Shown here in pieces: positions 11,026 to 25,239 of a DNA stretch of 25,452 nucleotides. The DNA is from a virus: positions 1 to 25,452 of the IMG/VR virus record IMGVR_UViG_3300042350_000169, one strand, 5' to 3'. Both the position numbers and the translations under genes were made by a program. The notes under the pieces were generated by a model, which saw only the letters and a program-made list of their open reading frames with translations, made no database searches and had not been told where the DNA came from. Each line of letters starts with the position of its first letter. Position 1 is the stretch's first letter.

Positions 11026-11759
11026 GCTAATTCCTTGAGTTTGAAAGCAGTTTCCTGCATTAGTCCATCACCGTAAAACACCACTTCAGCGTCTTGCGTT
11101 TCTATGAATTTCTCCATTTCAATCGCAGATTGAAGCATCTGGTGCGTTGTCTGGAATGTTCTCAAACCAACTCTGACCATGATTTTAGTCTGATCTTTGC
11201 CAGTGTGAGCACCTGCGTGGCGGTTTTTTACAAACGAACAATCCATGCCATGAATGTCAAATCTGCGAAACCCTAAAGCCGCTGAAACATTCATTGCCCG
11301 CATTCCTACGCTCGAACCGCCACCTATCAGGCTTTCCATTCCCTCGGGGTGGTGCTGGGCAACCCATGCCACCGTCTCGAAATCATCTCCATTTACCAAA
11401 TGCCATACCTTAACATTTTTCCCTTTGAGGGTCTCCCAAAAGTCTGGGTGGCAAACCGAGGCCATCAGGTACTTTGTGTTCTTCTGAGGCTTTTTCAGCA
11501 TCTGCGCTTTGTGCGCTCTGGGGTCGCAGTCCACATGGAAATCAGGAATAACGCCTCTTTCCACCAGATAGTCATGCGCCCCTGAGACCGTCATTATTGG
11601 GTGCTTGAGCTGCCGCCATGTATCCTCAAGGCTCGGGCCGTAACACGCAATGGTCATGCGCCGGTCGTTGAATTTGCCCTTTTTCTTCAGCAAGGGCAAG
11701 TGCATTGACTTTGCCATCTGCTCATGGCGCTCGGCATTGGTCAAGACCCCTTTAAGCAT
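11022..11759 (-). CDS. DUF115/MptE-like protein (stand-alone module)
   Basis: A 245-residue protein with the Rossmann-type pattern of the DUF115 family (6-hydroxymethylpterin diphosphokinase MptE-like; also found in Maf flagellin glycosyltransferases). Signatures are ACYGPSL (38-44), GAHDYLVERGVIPDFHVDCD (60-79), LMASVCHPDFW (98-108), LIGGGSSVG (144-152) and FDIHGMDCS (167-175). The same signatures occur in the same order in residues 45-250 of the fusion protein two genes upstream, so the two are paralogues. The activity of phage DUF115 proteins is not known; nucleotide-sugar or pyrophosphate transfer chemistry is possible. It begins inside the end of the methyltransferase gene (19-base overlap) behind a GAGGGTGGA site. 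It belongs to the sugar/methyl cassette between capsid and connector genes. Confidence 0.75.
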   Translation of the reverse strand: MLKGVLTNAERHEQMAKSMHLPLLKKKGKFNDRRMTIACYGPSLEDTWRQLKHPIMTVSGAHDYLVERGVIPDFHVDCDPRAHKAQMLKKPQKNTKYLMASVCHPDFWETLKGKNVKVWHLVNGDDFETVAWVAQHHPEGMESLIGGGSSVGMRAMNVSAALGFRRFDIHGMDCSFVKNRHAGAHTGKDQTKIMVRVGLRTFQTTHQMLQSAIEMEKFIETQDAEVVFYGDGLMQETAFKLKELA

Positions 11760-12253
11760 TCCACCCTCATGTCACGAAATGGGAAATGGTAGCGAGGCTC
11801 GCAAAATGTGATGTTTTGCATTCCTACCGATTCCAGCATATCTTGCAATGGGCGCTGAAACCAGCCCCAATGGTGGCACATGGCTTCACTCTTGTACTTG
11901 GGGTCTCCATACAGCGCATTCAGGGTCATAAAGGGCTGTAACGGCTCTTTTTTAACCACGCAATTGTGGACATAGGCAAACACCTTGTCCATGCAGGGAA
12001 GCTCTAAAATCATCTTGCCGCCGGGCTTTAGCACCCGCTTCCACTCGGTCAGCAGGTCGTAAACCTCCCACTCGTAAAAGTGCTCTAAAACGTGGATTGC
12101 TGCTACCGCATCGGCTGAATCGGTCGCTAACTCAAGTTTTCTTAGGTCACATTGGATGTCTGCAATATCTGAATGCAGGTCTACGTTTATCCAACCGTCC
12201 CATTTCTTTTTTCCGCATCCAAGGTTGTAGGCCGTCTCGTAGCTATCTTCCAC
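11741..12253 (-). CDS. Class I SAM-dependent methyltransferase (COG4627-like)
   Basis: A small methyltransferase of about 170 residues from GTG 12253. Motif I is YNLGCGKKKWDGWINVDL near residue 10, followed by CDLRKL (motif II/III region), AIHVLEHF and WKRVLKPGGKMILELP (motif VI). This layout, with GWINVDL straight after the glycine loop, is typical of predicted methyltransferases in lipopolysaccharide and glycan clusters. The frame stays open 5' to about 12421, but that part lies in another frame of the upstream fusion gene, has no family signature and is probably not translated. GTG 12253 places motif I close to the N terminus as in homologues, though no clear ribosome-binding site precedes it. 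It overlaps the upstream gene by 67 bases. Its methyl acceptor is unknown; a sugar or peptide made by the neighbours is a guess. Confidence 0.7.
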   Translation of the reverse strand: MEDSYETAYNLGCGKKKWDGWINVDLHSDIADIQCDLRKLELATDSADAVAAIHVLEHFYEWEVYDLLTEWKRVLKPGGKMILELPCMDKVFAYVHNCVVKKEPLQPFMTLNALYGDPKYKSEAMCHHWGWFQRPLQDMLESVGMQNITFCEPRYHFPFRDMRVECLKGS

Positions 12254-13818
12254 TTGTCGATCAGTGTTTGAGGCGAGAATTCTTCCCTCACGAACTTCTG
12301 CGCCTTGGAAATAAGTTTTTCCATGTCCTGTGTTTTCGTCCATTCGATGCCCTCTTTGATGTTGCCGATGTAGATCGGGAAACCCTCCAAGGCTGGATGC
12401 GGTTCTGCAACCACAAAACACCCCTGCCGAATTGCCTCAATTGCCCTGTTTGCGCTCTTGTAAGGAGCTGTGGCAGGGATCACCACTATATCGGCTCGGG
12501 CAAATTCCCTCAGCATGGTCTCATGCGACCAAGGGATTGCCCCATCAAAGTTTGATACCACCGCAAAAGGATAACCCTTAAGGTCTGGCAGTATGCGTTG
12601 CAGGCTTTCACGGTTGACATGATGCCCATACCAAAGCAAATTATCCCCATTGCAGTGCGGTGGCATCTCGGGGTATTCATAAGGGTCAGGGATTACCGTG
12701 GCATCCCGTCCCAGCTTTTTAATTCTTTTAGCCATCTCAGTAGTTGAGCAGGTCACCGCATCCGCAAGACGCAATGCCTCTTGGTAGTGCATCCAATCAA
12801 AATGGTCATCACAAAAGTCCACCACCACCCATGCGCCTCGGGCTTTGGCTCTTGCCATCACCATCAGCTCATTGGCCTGCGGCTTGGCAAACACCAGTGT
12901 GTCAGCAGTCAAATCGTTCTGGCTTGCCCAGTCGCCCGCAGGTATCTTGGCCCGATAGCGCCAGCTCGCAGCGTTCTTGTCGCCCCAATGGATGAATGAT
13001 GTGCGATTGTTAAGCTCTGTCTTGCCATTGATGATGCCGCCCAGCTCCATTATGTTTTGCTCGCGCTTTTTAATAATGGCTTGGATCAGGCCATGCCCAT
13101 GCCCATTAAATACCGCATCTGGCAAGTAATCGTAGTAGGTTTGGAAATGCTCGGCCTGCAACGCCATTGCGGTATTGCAATAAAAGGTTTCGCCTTGCGG
13201 GTCAATCTTGACCTCAACCAAACTGTCGCCCTCTTTGATTTTTTCGCCGTTAACCCTAAGCATCTGATCCTCATTACAAGAATCAAAGCCAAACAGTTCA
13301 AACTGGCGGTAGCCAAGGACGTAGAACAGCGATATAGCCCTTAATCCCGAGGTTGTGCCCCCACCTATCAGCATGGAGTTTTTAGGGCGGTCTTGGCCCT
13401 TTTTGACGTAGGGATGCCATATCGTGACCTGATACCCATTGAGGTTGTCAAACAGCGCTGGGTGGCATTGGCTGGCAATCATGTAATGCACTTCCTTGCG
13501 TGGCTTGTAAAACGCAATACGGTGCTCTTGTGGGTCAATAGCTAAGGCATAGTCGGGTATCACGCCTTGGGCAATAAGCCAATCGTGTGCGCCCTTGATC
13601 GCCACAATGGGCGACCCCGCCGCTTTCATCTTTCTAATGACCTCTATCTGACCCCTAACGCTCGGTGCGCTTGCCACCAACAAGATCGGCTCAGTCTTTA
13701 TGGGCTGGGCTTGCTTGATCTGCGGATAACCTCTGGCGATTGCCGCATCCATGTGGGCAAACAGTGTCTCATCTTCAGCGACACATTTTCCGGTTATTTT
13801 TAAGGGTACAGAACTCAT
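12187..13818 (-). CDS. Two-domain DUF115-glycosyltransferase (GT4-like) fusion
   Basis: A 543-residue bimodular protein. Residues about 43-250 form a DUF115/MptE-like domain: VASAPSVRG (48-56), GAHDWLIAQGVIPDYALAID (76-95), MIASQCHP (113-120), LIGGGTTSG (150-158) and FELFGFDS (173-180). Residues about 270-525 look like a GT-B glycosyltransferase of the GT4 type, with ADAVTCSTTEMAKRI (352-366), TVIPDPYEYP (374-383), LLWYGHH (394-400) and the sugar-nucleotide region KSANRAIEAIRQGCFVVAE (454-472). The Lys-Ser-Asn-Arg and Glu-Ala pattern before a glycine matches the GT4 donor-site motif. A role in glycan transfer is inferred; acceptor and donor are unknown. It is the first gene after the capsid block; its AAGGAGG site lies inside a hairpin (13827-13849), so expression may be separately controlled. 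Confidence 0.8.
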   Translation of the reverse strand: MSSVPLKITGKCVAEDETLFAHMDAAIARGYPQIKQAQPIKTEPILLVASAPSVRGQIEVIRKMKAAGSPIVAIKGAHDWLIAQGVIPDYALAIDPQEHRIAFYKPRKEVHYMIASQCHPALFDNLNGYQVTIWHPYVKKGQDRPKNSMLIGGGTTSGLRAISLFYVLGYRQFELFGFDSCNEDQMLRVNGEKIKEGDSLVEVKIDPQGETFYCNTAMALQAEHFQTYYDYLPDAVFNGHGHGLIQAIIKKREQNIMELGGIINGKTELNNRTSFIHWGDKNAASWRYRAKIPAGDWASQNDLTADTLVFAKPQANELMVMARAKARGAWVVVDFCDDHFDWMHYQEALRLADAVTCSTTEMAKRIKKLGRDATVIPDPYEYPEMPPHCNGDNLLWYGHHVNRESLQRILPDLKGYPFAVVSNFDGAIPWSHETMLREFARADIVVIPATAPYKSANRAIEAIRQGCFVVAEPHPALEGFPIYIGNIKEGIEWTKTQDMEKLISKAQKFVREEFSPQTLIDKWKIATRRPTTLDAEKRNGTVG

Positions 13819-15394: not shown

Positions 15395-16444
15395 TTAAAA
15401 ATTTGCCGACCGTAACGCATTTGCGATAACAGCTCGGCGGTCTGATTGACTGACTGGGCCAGAGACTGATGCACCGGGTGCGCCTCTTACCTGTACAGCC
15501 GCTTGTCTTGCTTTCTGTACTTGATTCTGTGCGGCGTAGCTTTGTTGCTGTTGAGCAAATAAACTTTGTGCCAATTGTGGATCAAGTCTTACAGCGGTTT
15601 CATATGCCACCTGCAATTTCTCGCGTTCTGACATATGACTAATGTCCCCTAGTACCTGCGGCGCTTGGAGAAGCGACAACATACGGTCTTGGACTGCCTC
15701 AAAGTGCGCGTTTGCGGGGTCGCTCGCAAACTGCTGGATTACAGAGAGTGCTCTGTTTTCATTCTGTTTCTGTGCTTCGTACTGCGACTGCGTGATGTGT
15801 TGCGTCAGTTGCTGTACTTGTTGCGCCAGTTGATTGTAGTGAGAATCTTGCTGTGGTGGTGCTTCGCCGCCAAAATAAGCAGCCACCTGATCCAATGGAA
15901 TTTGGAACTGCTGAATCATTTGGGCGACCGCTTGCGACTTTTGCTGTGGTGTGCCTGTTCTCAGCAATGCCGCAGTCTGGAGCAATGGGCCAATAGCTTG
16001 CGCGGGCGTACTGCCCTCATTCCGCAAAATCCATTCATACGGCGCAAATTGCTCGGTGATTGCCCGAGCCTCAGCGTCTCGTTGCTTATATGAGGTGATG
16101 CCCTTTTCGTAGTCAGCATCCCGCTGGGCAAAGGCTTGCTGTAACTCAGGCGGAGCTTTTTCCCAATGTTCTTTCAGCTCAAGGCGCAAAGATTTAGGCA
16201 TCTCAGTTCTAGGCTTGTCAGCCATCTGGGGCGCTTGGGTCTGGTCAGTTGGAAACTTAGGGGCAAACTTGCCACCCTCTCGGGGCTGGCTTGCGGCGTG
16301 TTTGCCACGGTTTGTCGGTGTCTTTGTCAGCGCCTCACGAATCGTGTCGGCTCTGCTTTGCGGCTCTGCTTGGGGCGCTTCGACCGCTGGAGTTTCGGGT
16401 GCTGGTGTTTCTACTGTGTCGGGTGCGACAACTTCGTTTTCCAT
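15395..16444 (-). CDS. Capsid assembly scaffolding protein
   Basis: A 349-residue acidic, Gln/Ala/Pro/Glu-rich protein with long helical coiled-coil segments, for example at about residues 200-240 (QLAQQVQQLTQHITQSQYEA) and 250-330 (VQKARQAAVQVRGAPG toward the end). The N-terminal 85 residues are disordered and Pro-rich with charged runs; the middle (HWEKAPPELQQAFAQRDADY) is a helix often seen in phage scaffolds. It lies directly upstream of the coat gene, the standard slot for a scaffold. The start at ATG 16444 shares its A with the upstream TGA; a GTG one codon earlier is open, but AAGGA sits seven bases before the ATG. Scaffold is assigned by composition, helicity and position, with high but not complete confidence. 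Confidence 0.8.
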   Translation of the reverse strand: MENEVVAPDTVETPAPETPAVEAPQAEPQSRADTIREALTKTPTNRGKHAASQPREGGKFAPKFPTDQTQAPQMADKPRTEMPKSLRLELKEHWEKAPPELQQAFAQRDADYEKGITSYKQRDAEARAITEQFAPYEWILRNEGSTPAQAIGPLLQTAALLRTGTPQQKSQAVAQMIQQFQIPLDQVAAYFGGEAPPQQDSHYNQLAQQVQQLTQHITQSQYEAQKQNENRALSVIQQFASDPANAHFEAVQDRMLSLLQAPQVLGDISHMSEREKLQVAYETAVRLDPQLAQSLFAQQQQSYAAQNQVQKARQAAVQVRGAPGASVSGPVSQSDRRAVIANALRSANF

Positions 16445-16866
16445 CACTTCATCCTTTTCATTTGTTCCAAAGTCATTTTGATCATCTCCTTGCGCTCAGG
16501 CATGGGACGGTTGTGTAAACGGTTTGCCATCTCTACGTTTAGGTTAGACATCTTAACAGGAGCAATCGGTGCGCCGGGTCGATCAAACTCTTGCACGGTC
16601 GCCAATTGTCCGCGCAGCCTGTCTCGGTGCGCTTCCTTTTTCTTGTTCCATTCTTGTTGGGCATACTTAACGTCAGAATGTCCCATTTCGATTGAATCGG
16701 TGCGCTTGAGGTGGTCACGCCACTGCTTTCTGCCCTCAATCATTACGCCATCAGGCGACATGAACGGGGCAATATCGCCCATCACTGCGGTGTATTCGCC
16801 AGATCGACCCTTAGATTTTTCGTAAGGCTCGCTACCGTCAGATGGAAATACCCAAGTTGTTCTCAC
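16444..16866 (-). CDS. Conserved phage head-region protein
   Basis: A 140-residue protein starting at a GTG that overlaps the upstream stop by four bases (GTGA). The middle part has GDIAPFMSPDGVMIEGRKQW followed by RDHLKRTDSIEMGHSDV, matching a recurring phage pattern (DI.PF.SP.G..I.SR...R.H..R) that I recall as an unassigned family in environmental phages near head genes. The C-terminal part is basic and helical with QEWNKKKEAHRDRLRG, and it ends in MTLEQMKRMK. No Cys pairs are present, so it is not a zinc-ribbon protein. It lies directly upstream of the scaffold. It may be a small packaging or assembly factor, but nothing in the sequence proves it. Confidence 0.7.
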   Translation of the reverse strand: MRTTWVFPSDGSEPYEKSKGRSGEYTAVMGDIAPFMSPDGVMIEGRKQWRDHLKRTDSIEMGHSDVKYAQQEWNKKKEAHRDRLRGQLATVQEFDRPGAPIAPVKMSNLNVEMANRLHNRPMPERKEMIKMTLEQMKRMK

Positions 16867-20396: not shown

Positions 20397-20672
20397 TCAG
20401 TTACCGCTAGAGAAGAAGAACGTCACATCTAATGTGCTGCCTATGGTTGCGTGTAGGTTTGATCCCACGTTGGCAGGGAATCGGTGAAACCCAATGGCTG
20501 GCGTGATCGTGCCAGACATGACCGCACCGCTTGCGCCACCATCCTTGAGCACCAAAGTGCCTGAGCTGGTGTTATTAACGTAGAAACCAATCAACTGGCA
20601 AGGGCCAGTGCTGACTGCGCCTGTGCTGGTGATGTTTTTGTATCCACCTACTTCTGCTACTGGCTGGCTCAT
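20397..20672 (-). CDS. Small beta-rich phage protein between terminase and portal
   Basis: A 91-residue protein: YKNITSTGAVSTGPCQLIGF, YVNNTSSGTLVLKDGG, GTITPAIGFHRFPANVG and ATIGSTLDVTFFFS. I recall this pattern (ISGTITPA..GFH.FP...) as a frequent small open frame in environmental phages, often near terminase or structural genes. It is almost all beta strands and has a single Cys. It starts on the large-terminase stop (ATGA) with AGAGGA six bases upstream and ends one base from the portal start. It may be a capsid or head-decoration component, but I cannot tell from sequence. Confidence 0.75.
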   Translation of the reverse strand: MSQPVAEVGGYKNITSTGAVSTGPCQLIGFYVNNTSSGTLVLKDGGASGAVMSGTITPAIGFHRFPANVGSNLHATIGSTLDVTFFFSSGN

Positions 20673-21988
20673 ATGCGTTCCTCTTTATGTTGCATCTCAT
20701 ATTCCCACAGCTCATCAAGTGTGATGGTTTGCAGGGTCTTGCCCTTGGGCGGTGTTTGATCTCTTGCCTCTTGTCGATAGGCTACTGCCAACATTCTAAA
20801 CGCATCTGCGGGGTGTGAGCACCAGTCGTGGCGTGGAGTTTGACGAAAAGTTTTCTTGTCTTCATCGTATTCTCGCTGGTATTGCCTTAACGCTTCCAGC
20901 CCCTCATCGCATCTAGAGTCAAAGTAACAGATGGGCAGGATCATCCTTACCGCTTGGATGCCGTCCTGTATGCCGATCTCAGGCACGATTGCCAGTTTGC
21001 TCATGCCGCCCAAATGTGCAGCCAACTGCTCGACAATCGACTTACCCCCCGAGGCCAAGGTTTTGGCTCTGGCATCATGCGGCAGAAAGTGGCGGGTGTA
21101 TCGGTAGCCCTTGGCTATAACCGTATTGGCTAATTCCTCAATGCTTGCGCCGCTGACAGCGTAATAGTCCATTACCCTGATCTCACCCCTAACCACCTGA
21201 TACCACCAAATTGCGGTGTCATCCCGATACCCTAAGTCCCATGCGGTGTAAACCGGCGCTTCTGGCTCAAACGGTAGCTCACAAATCCTGCCCTCATCAT
21301 CAGCCAAGCGCATTTCTTGACCGTAAAACGCCCCCAACAAGGCGGCATCAAAGCTGCACTCGTATTCTTGGTCGTATTGGTCTTGGCTTAACTGTGACCG
21401 AGCCGCCTGCAATTCTGAGTCGGGCAATATCTGGGACACGCTTGCGGGCAGCCTTAACAGAAACCAATCAGGCACTACTTGGCTTACCTTGTAGATGTCG
21501 TGGAACTGGTTTTTGCCTTTTGGCGTACCCCCAAACACAGCCCAGCCAAGGCGGTCAGACAATGTGGGGCGAATGACATTACCCCAAACGCTGGGCTTAA
21601 AGTCACCGTATTCATCAAGGTAAACGCCGTTAAAACCTAAGCCCCGCATAGCATCTGCGTTGTCAGAGCCAAACAGCATGATCTTTGCGCCATTGACTAA
21701 TTCCACGGCTAAGTCTGATTCATTGGTGGTTTTGGTAATGGGCGCGGCATAGTGTTTGATGTAATCCCACGCCACCCGCTTGGCTTGGCTGCGGAATGGG
21801 GCTATATAAGCGTATTGCGCCCCCCTGTGACCCTCGGTAATGGCTCGCTTGATCAAGTCGTTGATTGCCGCTACGGTCTTTCCAGCTCTACGGTGGGCAA
21901 CCAAACAAGACCAACGCTCAGTCCTGTTGTGAAATGGCATAAAAGCCGCCCTTGGGCTGTAGGGCAGGATTACTTCACGCCGCCCCAT
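20669..21988 (-). CDS. terL: Terminase large subunit
   Basis: The packaging ATPase-nuclease, 439 residues. Walker A is AHRRAGKT (31-38), Walker B GVYLDE (121-126), and the coupling motif GGTPKGKN (153-160). The C-terminal RNase H-like nuclease has its acidic residues at D251 (TAWDLGYRDDT), D305 (PHDAR) and D395 (HPADAFR). All expected catalytic residues are present, so it should be active. It powers DNA translocation into the procapsid and cuts the concatemer. The length is normal for phages that encode a small terminase next to it. The start, ATG 21988, lies 19 bases inside the small-subunit gene. The packaging strategy (pac or cos) cannot be decided from the window. Confidence 0.95.
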   Translation of the reverse strand: MGRREVILPYSPRAAFMPFHNRTERWSCLVAHRRAGKTVAAINDLIKRAITEGHRGAQYAYIAPFRSQAKRVAWDYIKHYAAPITKTTNESDLAVELVNGAKIMLFGSDNADAMRGLGFNGVYLDEYGDFKPSVWGNVIRPTLSDRLGWAVFGGTPKGKNQFHDIYKVSQVVPDWFLLRLPASVSQILPDSELQAARSQLSQDQYDQEYECSFDAALLGAFYGQEMRLADDEGRICELPFEPEAPVYTAWDLGYRDDTAIWWYQVVRGEIRVMDYYAVSGASIEELANTVIAKGYRYTRHFLPHDARAKTLASGGKSIVEQLAAHLGGMSKLAIVPEIGIQDGIQAVRMILPICYFDSRCDEGLEALRQYQREYDEDKKTFRQTPRHDWCSHPADAFRMLAVAYRQEARDQTPPKGKTLQTITLDELWEYEMQHKEERI

Positions 21989-22281
21989 GTCACCACCATT
22001 TCTACCGGCCCGTCATCTTTGCCGGTGATCTCAGTCCTTGCCAGCTTGGGTACATGGTATTCAACCACTGATTGAAATAGCTCAAAGGCTTTGGCAGGGT
22101 TTGGCTTTATATCGTGGTCAGGAACGCCGTTAGCGACCTGATCAAGCCAGTGCTCTAGGCGGTGTGAGTTGTTGTCAACAAACATGGCTATGGCTTGCCT
22201 AGCTTCAACTGTGCGCTTGTTTGGCAGTCCGGCGGGTCGGCCCGGCCCTGCTGTTGTTTTTTCACCTTTTTTAAACGGCAT
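21970..22281 (-). CDS. terS: Terminase small subunit (probable)
   Basis: A 103-residue protein directly upstream of terL and overlapping it by 19 bases, the standard position. The N-terminal FKKGEKTTAGPGRPAGLPNK is the basic GRP..G.PNK signature that precedes the DNA-binding helices of many phage small-terminase-like proteins. Then come EARQAIAMFVDNN and HRLEHWLDQVAN, with FELFQSVVEYHVPKLAR near 70-85. Its role would be to recognise the genome start and control the large subunit. It is short for a complete small subunit, so the oligomerisation part may be reduced. No clear ribosome-binding site precedes the ATG. The 41 bases upstream of it separate it from a divergent small gene. Confidence 0.75.
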   Translation of the reverse strand: MPFKKGEKTTAGPGRPAGLPNKRTVEARQAIAMFVDNNSHRLEHWLDQVANGVPDHDIKPNPAKAFELFQSVVEYHVPKLARTEITGKDDGPVEMVVTWGGVK

Positions 22282-22310
22282 ATGTTAAGGTTGCTTTACA
22301 ATATGGTTTT

Positions 22311-22315
22311 GGAGG
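22311..22315 (+). promoter_or_regulatory. Ribosome-binding site of the plus-strand small gene
   Basis: GGAGG lies seven bases before ATG 22323, the best-placed Shine-Dalgarno sequence near this junction and the main reason to accept the plus-strand gene. A TACAAT hexamer at 22297-22302 (one mismatch to TATAAT) is a possible -10 box, but no convincing -35 element was found. Confidence 0.65.
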
Positions 22316-22322
22316 ATTTGCA

Positions 22323-22484
22323 ATGAAACTGATTATAGTTAAGAAATCTAACTCTGGCTACACCGTTGAATTTGACCAAGAACTAGCCGATTCGCCAGAA
22401 GATGATCAGGACGCTTTTGTTGCTGATGCCATAGCCGCTTTAGAAGATAAGCTAATGTCGTTGCGGTATGACTCACTTTCTTGA
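22323..22484 (+). CDS. 53-residue acidic protein on the opposite strand (unknown)
   Basis: The only plus-strand gene I accept. It begins at ATG 22323 after a GGAGG site, ends TGA 22484 and encodes MKLIIVKKSNSGYTVEFDQE followed by an acidic middle (SPEDDQDAFVAD) and a short amphipathic helix (AIAALEDKLMSL). The predicted fold is a beta hairpin plus helix, with no family I recognise. It is divergent from terS (41 bases apart) and converges on the 518-residue gene, overlapping it by 12 bases at the 3' ends. This separates the non-structural genes at the right from the packaging/virion operon. Because it is so short, a regulator, inhibitor or host-interaction peptide is possible, but nothing in the sequence decides. 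The strong ribosome-binding site and codon pattern argue that it is translated. Confidence 0.7.
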   Translation: MKLIIVKKSNSGYTVEFDQELADSPEDDQDAFVADAIAALEDKLMSLRYDSLS

Positions 22485-24029
22485 AGCATCTTTCCAGCCG
22501 CGCTGCTTAACTTTTTCTTCGTAGGCTTTGATTTGGTCAATCAATTGTTGGTCAATGATCTGGAATACGCCAGCCTTGCGTTTTTCTAATGCGCCAATGA
22601 CTGCATCGTGTATCTGGCTTTCATTAAAAGGCTTGCCGTTTTTGTCTACGGCATTTTCATATTCTTTGCGTATGGCGTTGTATCGGTCGCGCATAAATAC
22701 TTCAGATGGCACATTACCTATGCCGCCCACATATTTGCCGCTGAAGTCTGTTGTGTAACTTGGGTTGCTTGATGGCGATAGTGTTAAGGGCTTTTTTCCA
22801 TGCGACATCACCACATTCAATCCATATCCTCGCGGTACACCCAATAAATCTTCGGCAGTAATTGCGTTGCTTATGTCTTGCCGGTTAAATTTAAAATATT
22901 TTTCGTTGTCTTCGGTGTACATTGACCGCACAAACTTTTTGCGTAATTGTCCATTGTTTACATTTAGCAATTGCGCTCTACCCTCTGGCGTATTGATACC
23001 GGCAAATTCTGGGTAATCCTCTTGTACAAATTTATTTATTTCGTTTGCTTTAGATTTTGCAGCCTTACGTTTATCAAATAAATCTAATAATATAGTTGTT
23101 GGTTGTACTGAGTAATTTTCTGAAAACGCTCCCATTGTAGTGGGTGTTTGTAAAACAATGCCCGAGCCACCAGCGTCTAGGTTTTCTTTTCTTGCAACAT
23201 CCACACGGTCTGCAATTCTGTCAACAATGCTTTTGGCTGATGCCCCGCCAATATTTTTTTGTTGATGCAAAATATCCATCAAATGGCCTTGCCCGCCAGT
23301 AGTAATTAACGGGTTTGTCAGCGCTTCATCTGATACAGATTCAATTCGGACGTTTCGGCTTGAATTGTCCCAAGGAATTGTGCCTATGCTTGCGCCCTTG
23401 TATTTTTGTATGTCAAATGCTTGCGGGGCTACCAAACCGCCTAAATCAGTTCTTTGATACCTTGTGCCAACTTCTGGCGGCATCTTTGGTCTAGTCGGCA
23501 TATAAATAAATTGCGACTCAGGCGTAATTGTTCCCAGCAATGACCGTGTGGGTTGGCCTGTGAGCTTGTTGCTAATTTCTTGCCCCGCCAATTTTGCATA
23601 TCCTGTTACCGCAGGTTTCAGCACTTTAGCGGTCGCTGGTGTCATGTACCCGCCCAGCTCCTCCATCCCCGCCGTTTCTGGTCTGGTGGCCGTTCCTCTA
23701 GGCATCATGCCCAAAATATCCCGCGAGCCGCCCGGTAACTGTTTGTCAGGCGTGTAGTTCACATCCCCAAACACTTCCATTGGGTAAGGTGTCCTAACCG
23801 TGTTTGCGGTATCCACAGGCGCACCCAAAAATGTTGATAAACCTCCGCGACCCAATGATTCCAGATTACTGCCAACCGCTTGGCTAAACCCTTTCAGCAT
23901 TCCAAGCAGGTCGCCGGCCGTGGCTTTCTTGCCGTTTTTCAGCGTGATCAACGTGTCAGCCGTAATCGGGCCGGTATCTTGTCCATACCCACCACCCAGC
24001 GCCGCAGCCATGTCACGGTAATCAGCCAT
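22473..24029 (-). CDS. Polyvalent/ejected-type phage protein, function unknown
   Basis: 518 residues from ATG 24029. A TTG one codon upstream is open, but GGGAG lies seven bases before the ATG. The N-terminal region has LKNGKKATAGDLLGMLKGF followed by GGLSTFLGAPVDTANTV and then GSRDILGMM, with RPETAGMEELGGYMTPATAK. This GAPVD-type run recurs in large polyvalent proteins and ejected proteins of phages (recalled). The middle and C-terminal region has ESVSDEALTNPLITTGGQGH, then YPEFAGINTPEGRAQL, GQLRKKFVRSM and SNPSYTTDFSGKYVGG, resembling a domain in the same class of proteins. It does not look like a virion shell protein. A role as protein delivered with DNA is plausible. It is coupled to the GT8-like gene by an 8-base overlap. 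Confidence 0.6.
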   Translation of the reverse strand: MADYRDMAAALGGGYGQDTGPITADTLITLKNGKKATAGDLLGMLKGFSQAVGSNLESLGRGGLSTFLGAPVDTANTVRTPYPMEVFGDVNYTPDKQLPGGSRDILGMMPRGTATRPETAGMEELGGYMTPATAKVLKPAVTGYAKLAGQEISNKLTGQPTRSLLGTITPESQFIYMPTRPKMPPEVGTRYQRTDLGGLVAPQAFDIQKYKGASIGTIPWDNSSRNVRIESVSDEALTNPLITTGGQGHLMDILHQQKNIGGASAKSIVDRIADRVDVARKENLDAGGSGIVLQTPTTMGAFSENYSVQPTTILLDLFDKRKAAKSKANEINKFVQEDYPEFAGINTPEGRAQLLNVNNGQLRKKFVRSMYTEDNEKYFKFNRQDISNAITAEDLLGVPRGYGLNVVMSHGKKPLTLSPSSNPSYTTDFSGKYVGGIGNVPSEVFMRDRYNAIRKEYENAVDKNGKPFNESQIHDAVIGALEKRKAGVFQIIDQQLIDQIKAYEEKVKQRGWKDASRK

Positions 24030-24702
24030 CAACCGTCTCCCGCATTTTAATTAAGCCGTTCATCATTCGGCTTTTAGTATTGTGCCACTGCTTACTGAAA
24101 TCACAATCTTGGTAATGGTCAAACTCAGGAATGCCTAGCGTGTAATGCGCTATCTTGGCGTTTTTGTTGTCTTGCTCGCCCACCAGTACGTTCCATTCTT
24201 TCGGTAGCTCACCGATAAGTGAATCGGGCAACCAACCGAATCGGTGCAAGTCTGAGCCGCTGTGGTCATCCACAAACTCAGGTGTTAATACCTTATTTCT
24301 TGGGTGATCACAATTCCAAAGTATTAAACTTGACCAGTTCTTTCGGGGATAGTCCCGATTCGCCGCTTCCATCGGTGTGCCAATGTATTTCCTTGGGTGC
24401 TTGGTCTGATATTCGTGCTTGACCACCTGCACCGCCTTGGTCGGGTCAAACAGCTTGCTTAGGTCAGCAATGTTGGACAGCATCAGCATATCGCTGGCAT
24501 CCATAAATATCGCCCTGCCAGTGAATTTGGTGAAATAGGGGACTAGAAACCGCTGATAGGTAAATGCGTTTGTGCCGTCCCGCTGTGTACCGTGTAGCGG
24601 TGTTATGGCGACTGGCTCGCTGGTGCGCTCAATCAGGCTCTGGCAGAACACATGGTAGCCAATGGCCTCCCGAGGGTCATAGCCAGCGAATATTCTGATC
24701 AT
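24022..24702 (-). CDS. Glycosyltransferase, GT8-like (GT-A fold)
   Basis: A 226-residue protein with GT-A features: RIFAGYDPREAIGYHVFCQS at the N terminus, YQRFLVPYF, and FMDASDMLML, in which D68-A-S-D71 is the likely metal-binding DXD-type motif. Next is YPRKNWSSLILWNCDH (118-133), a common acceptor-side stretch, and a C-terminal KIAHYTLGIPEF (183-194) with a His that often coordinates the metal in GT8-like enzymes. It would transfer a hexose from a nucleotide sugar to an unknown acceptor, perhaps a virion protein, host surface glycan or modified DNA. It begins on the upstream gene's stop (ATGA) and overlaps the 518-residue gene at its end. The family name rests on recalled motifs. Confidence 0.8.
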   Translation of the reverse strand: MIRIFAGYDPREAIGYHVFCQSLIERTSEPVAITPLHGTQRDGTNAFTYQRFLVPYFTKFTGRAIFMDASDMLMLSNIADLSKLFDPTKAVQVVKHEYQTKHPRKYIGTPMEAANRDYPRKNWSSLILWNCDHPRNKVLTPEFVDDHSGSDLHRFGWLPDSLIGELPKEWNVLVGEQDNKNAKIAHYTLGIPEFDHYQDCDFSKQWHNTKSRMMNGLIKMRETVDG

Positions 24703-25212: not shown

Positions 25213-25239
25213 AAAAAAAGCAGGGGTCAATGCCCCTGC
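25213..25239 (-). terminator. Strong intrinsic terminator overlapping a stop codon
   Basis: The minus strand reads GCAGGGG, CATTGA, CCCCTGC, then TTTTTTT (stem 25233-25239 with 25220-25226; T-run 25213-25219). Seven perfect GC-rich pairs and seven Ts give a textbook rho-independent terminator. The loop contains the TGA stop of the DUF1364-like gene (25227-25229), so the gene ends inside its own terminator. Confidence 0.9.

What the first reader, a model, noticed from the sequence alone, without database searches (positions are those of the whole stretch)
22323..22484. Sole plus-strand gene, 53 codons, placed between two operons
All other accepted genes are on the minus strand. This one has a strong GGAGG site, converges on the 518-residue gene with a 12-base tail overlap, and diverges from terS. 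A lone small gene at a transcriptional boundary often encodes a regulator or host-takeover peptide; its transcript would also be antisense to read-through from the right-hand genes.
Basis: partly seen in the sequence, partly recalled or inferred. Interest (0 to 1): 0.55.

Follow-up and report, generated by a model that had tools for sequence, protein, structure and literature searches.

The report
Small partner of swappable phage protein
A tiny, genuinely protein-coding phage gene faces the tail of a larger gene whose end is swapped between related phages, and a matching small gene is swapped along with it, which suggests the small protein binds and controls the end of the larger protein.

Summary
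ORF 22323-22484(+) encodes 53 aa, has GGAGG 7 nt before its ATG, starts 41 bp from divergent terS, and overlaps the convergent 518-aa gene by 12 bp. Its frame is conserved in 12 viral contigs with mostly silent changes (pN/pS 0.16 over 7 distinct sequences).

The interpretation changes. The facing protein keeps its N-terminal part while its C-terminal domain is swapped between relatives. Behind one conserved leader stand four unrelated small genes (types A-D), each facing a different C-terminus. Type B was tested widely: 29 of 29 small-gene loci face a type-B domain, and 78 of 81 type-B loci carry the small gene (two of the three misses are contig ends). Types B and C both occur on two distinct N-terminal backbones, each with its own kind of small gene. 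In 19 of 19 relatives with other C-termini the large gene ends within 76 bp of terS, with no room for one.

Best reading: an acidic partner that neutralises the basic C-terminal domain of a polymorphic, probably virion-borne protein. It resembles a polymorphic toxin-immunity pair, but is tail-to-tail and in phages mostly without a detected integrase. Coding and co-exchange are shown; binding and neutralisation are inferred. A packaging chaperone or a hitch-hiking accessory gene remain rivals.

The parts
22323..22484 (+). small gene sA, 53 aa, acidic (pI 4.1)
   Evidence: ORF and SD, best codon score of 91 plus ORFs, 12 viral contigs, pN/pS 0.16, pI
22282..22322 (+). conserved divergent leader between terS and sA: TTAAGGTTGCTTTACAATATGG (22285-22306) with a -10-like TACAAT (22297-22302), then GGAGG (22311-22315)
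   Evidence: kept almost unchanged in front of four unrelated small genes in 19 contigs; single copy in the window. Promoter role is inference: the sigma-70 scan did not call it
22473..22484 (.). 12-bp tail-to-tail overlap of sA and the 518-aa gene
22473..24032 (-). convergent gene, 519 codons from TTG (518 aa from ATG), with exchangeable C-terminus
23505..24032 (-). constant N-terminal part (aa 1-176) of the convergent protein
   Evidence: matched at 60-100% identity in relatives with other C-termini; in some the shared part ends near residue 142
22476..23504 (-). exchangeable C-terminal domain type A (CtA), basic (pI 9.2), distant relative of type B
21970..22281 (-). small terminase subunit by position, divergent neighbour of sA
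   Evidence: overlaps the start of TerL; its PHROG match is of unknown function
20669..21988 (-). large terminase subunit
   Evidence: phrog_2 E 6e-38; Terminase_6N and 6C

Best explanation
The 53-aa gene is the small half of an exchangeable two-gene unit: a C-terminal domain (here type A) at the end of a polymorphic protein encoded just upstream of the terminase genes, plus a convergent small gene that goes with that domain type. The large protein probably travels in the virion (inferred from its place among late genes). The small acidic protein most likely binds the basic C-terminal domain in the cell that makes it and keeps it inactive, as an immunity protein does, until the large protein is packaged or after it has been injected. 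It is made from its own divergent leader, so its supply does not depend on transcription of its target. Shown here: coding, conservation, convergent layout, and co-exchange with the C-terminal domain. Inferred: binding, neutralisation, virion packaging, promoter activity.
For: (1) Real gene. (2) Same slot, different gene: of 21 contigs in the capped terS/TerL lists whose terS matches from residue 1, 19 have the conserved leader and a small gene behind it (11 type A, 6 B, 1 C, 1 D); types A, B and C face different C-termini on the same N-terminal part; for D only the last 82 residues of the large protein are held. (3) Both ways for A: 11 of 11 CtA loci have sA, and the 12th sA contig ends inside the gene. 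(4) Both ways for B: 29 of 29 sB loci face CtB; 78 of 81 CtB loci have convergent sB, none co-directional, overlaps 4-35 bp; these 78 form 34 clusters at 90% and 22 at 80% identity of the large protein, with TerL as low as 38%. (5) Type C: 18 loci, an sC relative in 6 and another small convergent ORF in 9. (6) Two N-terminal backbones without direct similarity (best E 0.16) each occur with CtB+sB and with CtC+sC: L105 and L102 (74% identical N-termini), L289 and L292 (80% over 111 residues). (7) In 19 of 19 distinct relatives with other C-termini the large gene ends within 76 bp of terS. (8) Opposite charge: CtA-CtD pI 7.9-9.2; sA, sB, sC 4.1-4.7. (9) Roseobacter phage CRP-902 has a distant type-B-like domain with a convergent 77-aa gene (pI 4.4) 2 bp away.
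Against: No activity is known for CtA or CtB: no significant Pfam or PHROG match and a useless fold model (pLDDT 41.5). Overlapping genes move together for physical reasons alone; in a distance test on 50 loci sB tracks the N-terminus (r 0.79) as well as it tracks CtB (0.76; TerL 0.55). CtC proteins 57% identical (L292, L296) have unrelated small partners, and L102 and L292 sC do not match each other directly, only through L291. The two backbones are linked through an intermediate (L278) in single-linkage clustering. sD is basic (pI 9.7). L230 has CtB and no sB; phage C72C1 has the domain with co-directional small genes; MW202879 has a convergent gene 120 bp away, not overlapping. No orphan small gene turned up, as immunity arrays would have. 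Counts include near-identical loci and contigs fetched more than once.
Confidence: 0.5

Rival explanations
1. The small protein is a dedicated folding or loading chaperone for the C-terminal domain: it keeps the domain soluble or steers it into the procapsid rather than neutralising a harmful activity.
For: Same pairing data and the same charge pattern; small acidic partners are typical of effector chaperones (general knowledge).
Against: Relatives with other C-terminal types and the same N-terminus have no room for a small gene (19 of 19), so loading as such does not need one.
Confidence: 0.2
2. A hitch-hiking accessory gene (moron) with its own leader: a host-takeover or counter-defence peptide that sits in a recombination hot spot and moves with the neighbouring C-terminal segment only because it overlaps it.
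For: Own conserved leader; convergent position; exchange by recombination; sB distances track the N-terminus as well as CtB; unrelated small partners beside related CtC domains.
Against: 78 of 81 type-B loci keep the gene, with TerL as low as 38% identity; the B and C pairings recur on two backbones; every sB hit lies beside CtB.
Confidence: 0.13
3. The transcript matters, not the peptide: plus-strand RNA blocks or trims read-through from the large gene into terS.
For: Convergent overlap and conserved leader.
Against: Purifying selection on the protein (pN/pS 0.16); overlap length varies from 4 to 65 bp; unrelated proteins fill the slot; no Rfam match in the window.
Confidence: 0.05
4. A DNA-binding regulator acting on the terS/sA divergent leader.
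Against: No significant regulator family match; that Z is in the range the tool calls uninformative; no viral model matches at E <= 0.001; the leader stays the same while the small protein changes completely, which a self-regulating DNA-binder would not allow.
Confidence: 0.05

Closest known systems
MuF polymorphic toxins of temperate phages with a small following ORF (PMC5576092; passages and section 8 read)
   Same: Constant N-terminus, exchangeable C-terminus, location near portal/terminase genes, and a small ORF next to the gene.
   Different: Here convergent and overlapping; no MuF domain detected; no integrase found in 13 of 14 chosen long contigs; no known toxin domain recognised in types A or B.
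Polyvalent proteins of phages and conjugative elements (PMC5512222; abstract, outline, 12 passages and the ART section read)
   Same: Proteins encoded among late/virion genes with exchangeable domains; one relative of the large gene matches 'ParB C-terminal domain' (L031, phrog_2579).
   Different: Types A and B match no family significantly; the phrases 'immunity protein' and 'adjacent gene' do not occur in that paper's held text. I did not read it whole.
Polymorphic toxin-immunity cassettes of Mycobacterium abscessus prophages (PMC9934374; passages read)
   Same: Toxin and immunity genes exchanged as a block between phages.
   Different: Integrated prophages; the toxin is thought to leave by an ESX/type VII secretion system; a three-gene cassette near an att site, not a tail-to-tail pair beside terS.

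Membership tests
Polymorphic toxin-immunity system (general) | constant N-terminus with exchangeable C-terminus | tested here: met
   a shared N-terminal part of about 140-176 residues with many C-termini
Polymorphic toxin-immunity system (general) | small neighbouring gene specific to the C-terminal type | tested here: met
   A 11 of 11, B 78 of 81; C is mixed: sC relatives in 6 of 18, other small ORFs in 9, none credible in 3
Polymorphic toxin-immunity system (general) | immunity gene immediately downstream in the same direction | tested here: not met
   convergent in all 78 type-B pairs and in the 11 type-A pairs
Polymorphic toxin-immunity system (general) | C-terminal domain is toxic and the small protein protects | not testable with these tools
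   needs expression assays
MuF toxins | MuF domain in the N-terminal part | tested here: not met
   no Pfam match at E <= 1 for 22473-24032
MuF toxins | temperate phage | tested here: inconclusive
   no Phage_integrase match in 13 of 14 and no Resolvase match in 14 of 14 long contigs, the one integrase being in the type-C record of L302; HTH_3 over its cut-off in 2 of 14; records may be incomplete
Polyvalent protein | known polyvalent domains in the protein | tested here: inconclusive
   none found in the window protein; ParB-type match in relative L031
Polyvalent protein | encoded among virion genes, packaged and injected | tested here: inconclusive
   position next to terS, TerL and portal shown; packaging not testable
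Phage moron | own promoter and terminator, independent of neighbours | tested here: inconclusive
   conserved leader, but no sigma-70-type promoter called on it
Transcriptional regulator | recognisable DNA-binding family or fold | tested here: inconclusive
   no significant family match; structure comparisons without a significant match

The most novel reading that the evidence does not exclude
A polymorphic effector/immunity contest between lytic phages: virions inject a protein with an exchangeable C-terminal domain that harms a co-infecting or resident rival phage (or the shared host), and the small convergent gene protects the phage's own infection from its own kind of domain. Competition between phages in one cell would explain why domain and small gene are swapped as a unit on more than one backbone.
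Probability: 0.12. Interest if true: 0.85.

Novelty: new variant of a known kind. Interest (0 to 1): 0.58.

Why it matters
Many small phage genes have no assigned role. Here dozens of environmental phage contigs keep a specific small gene facing a specific exchangeable domain, which gives a concrete, testable partner for an otherwise anonymous 53-residue protein. If the small protein neutralises the domain, phages without a detected integrase carry toxin-immunity-like pairs in an overlapping tail-to-tail layout that I did not find described in the searches made (open-licence papers only).

Tried and rejected
Rejected: chance ORF. Rejected: a 219-codon plus-strand ORF at 16166-16825 as a second plus gene; its codon score is -0.44 bits per codon while the minus genes over it score positive. 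Overturned during work: an early note spoke of more than ten N-termini for type-B proteins; single-linkage clustering gives 4 groups among 77, though within the largest group some members have no direct similarity.

Led nowhere: Pfam and PHROG for sA, sB and the large proteins of types A and B (only weak matches); named phages with sA or sB (none); fold of CtA (pLDDT 41.5, not searched); structure comparison of the sA model with PDB chains (best Z 3.6) and with viral models (best E 0.21, none at E <= 0.001), the other four sA models being at pLDDT 66-69; sA versus sB and sC by profile comparison (no similarity); Rfam; genome-contig scan for CtB (one contig of a MAG labelled Flavobacteriaceae, partly masked, with the pair present).

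CtA-CtB homology is distant: 18-22% identity in an alignment, hhalign E 0.0019 but probability only 14%, CtB-profile hits in one CtA contig only (E 4e-4, four loci of that contig). Phage C72C1 bridges them (E 1e-11 to CtA; 8e-14 to the CtB profile).

Not controlled: no shuffled expectation was computed for small convergent ORFs beside CtC; L292-L295 print the same small protein, as do L302-L304. Dropped before counts: L012 (cut off) from the selection test; loci with identical sequence around the TerL start merged; from the distance test, all but the 50 loci with both TerL and an N-terminal part. Lists were capped at 80 loci. Many loci are the same contigs fetched again.

Full report
What was checked. 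The plus-strand ORF at 22323-22484 exists as described: ATG start, 53 codons, GGAGG at 22311-22315, 41 bp from the divergent start of terS, and a 12-bp overlap with the 3' end of the convergent minus-strand gene 22473-24032. The window is a virus record of 25,452 bases with TerL, portal and major head protein genes. Among the minus-strand genes taken between 2 and 25061, 22282-22472 is the only hole over 39 bp. The ORF has the best codon score of 91 plus-strand ORFs of at least 50 aa and is the only one of 33 plus-strand ATG ORFs of at least 40 aa with a Shine-Dalgarno-like site. A viral-contig scan found 12 contigs encoding it at 91-100% identity, one cut off, with leader and start conserved. 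Over 7 distinct full-length sequences pN/pS is 0.16 (0.14 without the overlap), against 0.27 to 3.8 when the same DNA is read in the other five frames; 14 of 23 variable columns are third positions. It is a protein-coding gene.

One limit on the observation. In a 35.9-kb relative, nine ORFs kept by a codon-score filter (L308 2693-6407) are on the same strand as this gene, so it is the only gene of its strand in the window, not in the phage.

The slot. Of 21 contigs in the capped lists whose small terminase matches the window's from its first residue, 19 keep GTTAAGG(T/A)TGCTTTACAATATGGTTTTGGAGG between terS and a divergent small gene; the other two (L113, L114; terS 79-80%) lack it. Behind this leader stand four unrelated small genes: type A (this one, 11 contigs, one cut off), type B (69 aa, 6), type C (63 aa, 1) and type D (74 aa, 1; its first nine residues equal those of A). 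The leader therefore belongs to the backbone and the small gene is what changes.

What changes with it. The facing gene has a shared N-terminal part of about 140-176 residues and a C-terminus that differs between relatives. Each small-gene type faces its own C-terminus; for D only the last 82 residues of the large protein are held. Of 33 distinct large-gene sequences listed, 12 are of types A-C and end 191-231 bp before terS; 19 have other C-termini and end within 76 bp of terS (15 of them within 10 bp or overlapping it; distances are approximate because terS starts were extrapolated), leaving no room for such a gene; two could not be judged (L052 without a terS match, L110 with a broken frame). 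The small gene follows the C-terminal type rather than the terS clade: L182, L183 and L246 belong to another terS clade (77-78% identity) and have CtB with sB.

Pairing tests. A: 11 loci of CtA, 11 with sA. B, from the small gene: 29 loci, 29 face CtB. B, from the domain: 419 relatives, the best 80 read plus one MAG contig; 78 of 81 have a convergent sB-family gene with overlaps of 4, 7, 12, 20, 21 or 35 bp and none co-directional; L242 and L252 end 7 and 17 bp after the stop, and L230 is a true exception with no small gene. The 78 collapse to 40, 34, 22 and 7 clusters at 95, 90, 80 and 70% identity of the large protein. Within the flank held, a terS and/or TerL match lies beyond sB in 54 of 78, a DUF3310-like gene in 11 (directly beside sB in 8), and neither was detected in 13, some of which have short flanks. 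C: 18 loci; sC relatives in 6 (L102, L291, L292-L295), a second small convergent family in 6 (L296-L301), a third small ORF in 3 (L302-L304), none credible in 3 (L305-L307). The sC grouping rests on L102-L291 (E 1e-10) and L291-L292 (E 6e-6) in one-to-one comparisons; L102 and L292 do not match directly.

Two backbones. The N-terminus of L289 (type B with sB) is 80% identical over 111 residues to that of L292 (type C with sC), while L105 (type B with sB) and L102 (type C with sC) share another N-terminus (74%). The two N-termini show no direct similarity (best E 0.16), although single-linkage clustering joins L100 and L289 through L278. So on both backbones type B goes with sB and type C with sC.

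What this does and does not show. It shows that the unit of exchange is C-terminal domain plus convergent small gene and that type B almost always keeps its small gene. It does not prove interaction: the genes overlap, so they move together physically, and over 50 loci sB distances follow the N-terminus (r 0.79) as well as CtB (0.76), with TerL at 0.55. CtC proteins 57% identical have different small partners (L292, L296), which speaks against a strict one-to-one rule. Distant relatives of the domain in named records are mixed: CRP-902 has a convergent 77-aa gene 2 bp away, MW202879 a convergent one 120 bp away, C72C1 co-directional small genes. The charge pattern (domains pI 7.9-9.2; the partners computed 4.1-5.3, with sD at 9.7 as the exception) fits binding but is weak evidence.

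How it may work. The large gene lies directly before terS, TerL and portal, where packaged and injected effectors are commonly encoded (PMC5512222 and PMC5576092, passages). I infer that the protein is packaged and acts in the next cell, and that the small protein, made from its own leader, binds and silences the domain in the producing cell or ends its action after entry. Neutralisation is put ahead of a chaperone role because relatives with other C-termini manage without a small gene, and ahead of a hitch-hiking peptide because of the near-constant retention. The predicted sA model is a beta-hairpin followed by a long helix (best model pLDDT 84.8, the other four 66-69) without a significant relative among PDB chains compared or viral models. 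sA, sB and sC are not detectably related to one another.

Known systems. [quoted passage not shown] Differences here: tail-to-tail overlap, no MuF domain, no integrase in 13 of 14 and no resolvase in 14 of 14 long contigs that I chose, and no recognised toxin domain in types A or B. I therefore file it as working like such a pair, not as a member. I found no description of the layout in the paper searches made, which cover open-licence papers only.

Noticed in passing
L026, L033, L064, L126 (C-termini of the large gene): C-terminus beginning 'YHGTPH...GTGEGAQ.YGYGIY', which I recall as ADP-ribosyltransferase-like; Pfam gave no significant match for L033. The gene ends about 5 bp before terS with no small gene.
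   Followed up: partly
L140 (C-terminus of the large gene): C-terminus with 'YDGNHR', recalled as a ParB-like nuclease motif; no PHROG match for L140, but L031 matches 'ParB C-terminal domain'.
   Followed up: partly
L007, L110, L171 (one contig): The large gene is frameshifted near residue 115 while sA is intact; error or real break not decided.
   Followed up: no
window 22332-22360 (-): A minus-strand promoter-like site (TAGCCA, 17 nt, TATAAT) lies inside the start of sA and would point at terS; only 2 sites were found where 6.5 were expected, so it may be chance.
   Followed up: no
window 25220-25239 (-): Terminator-like stem GCAGGGGCATTGACCCCTGC plus T-run at the end of an upstream minus-strand ORF, with a promoter-like site at 25288-25261 just before it.
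   Followed up: no
window 24022-24702 (-): The gene before the 518-aa gene resembles a glycosyltransferase family 8 protein (below the Pfam cut-off) and matches phrog_28018 at E 1.6e-40.
   Followed up: no
L308 6553-6705: 50-codon ORF that looks to me like a Cro-type helix-turn-helix protein beside the opposite-strand block; not searched.
   Followed up: no
window 11741-12421 and 12187-13818 (-): Two long minus-strand ORFs overlap by 235 bp; the first has a methyltransferase PHROG match, so one of the starts is probably wrong.
   Followed up: no
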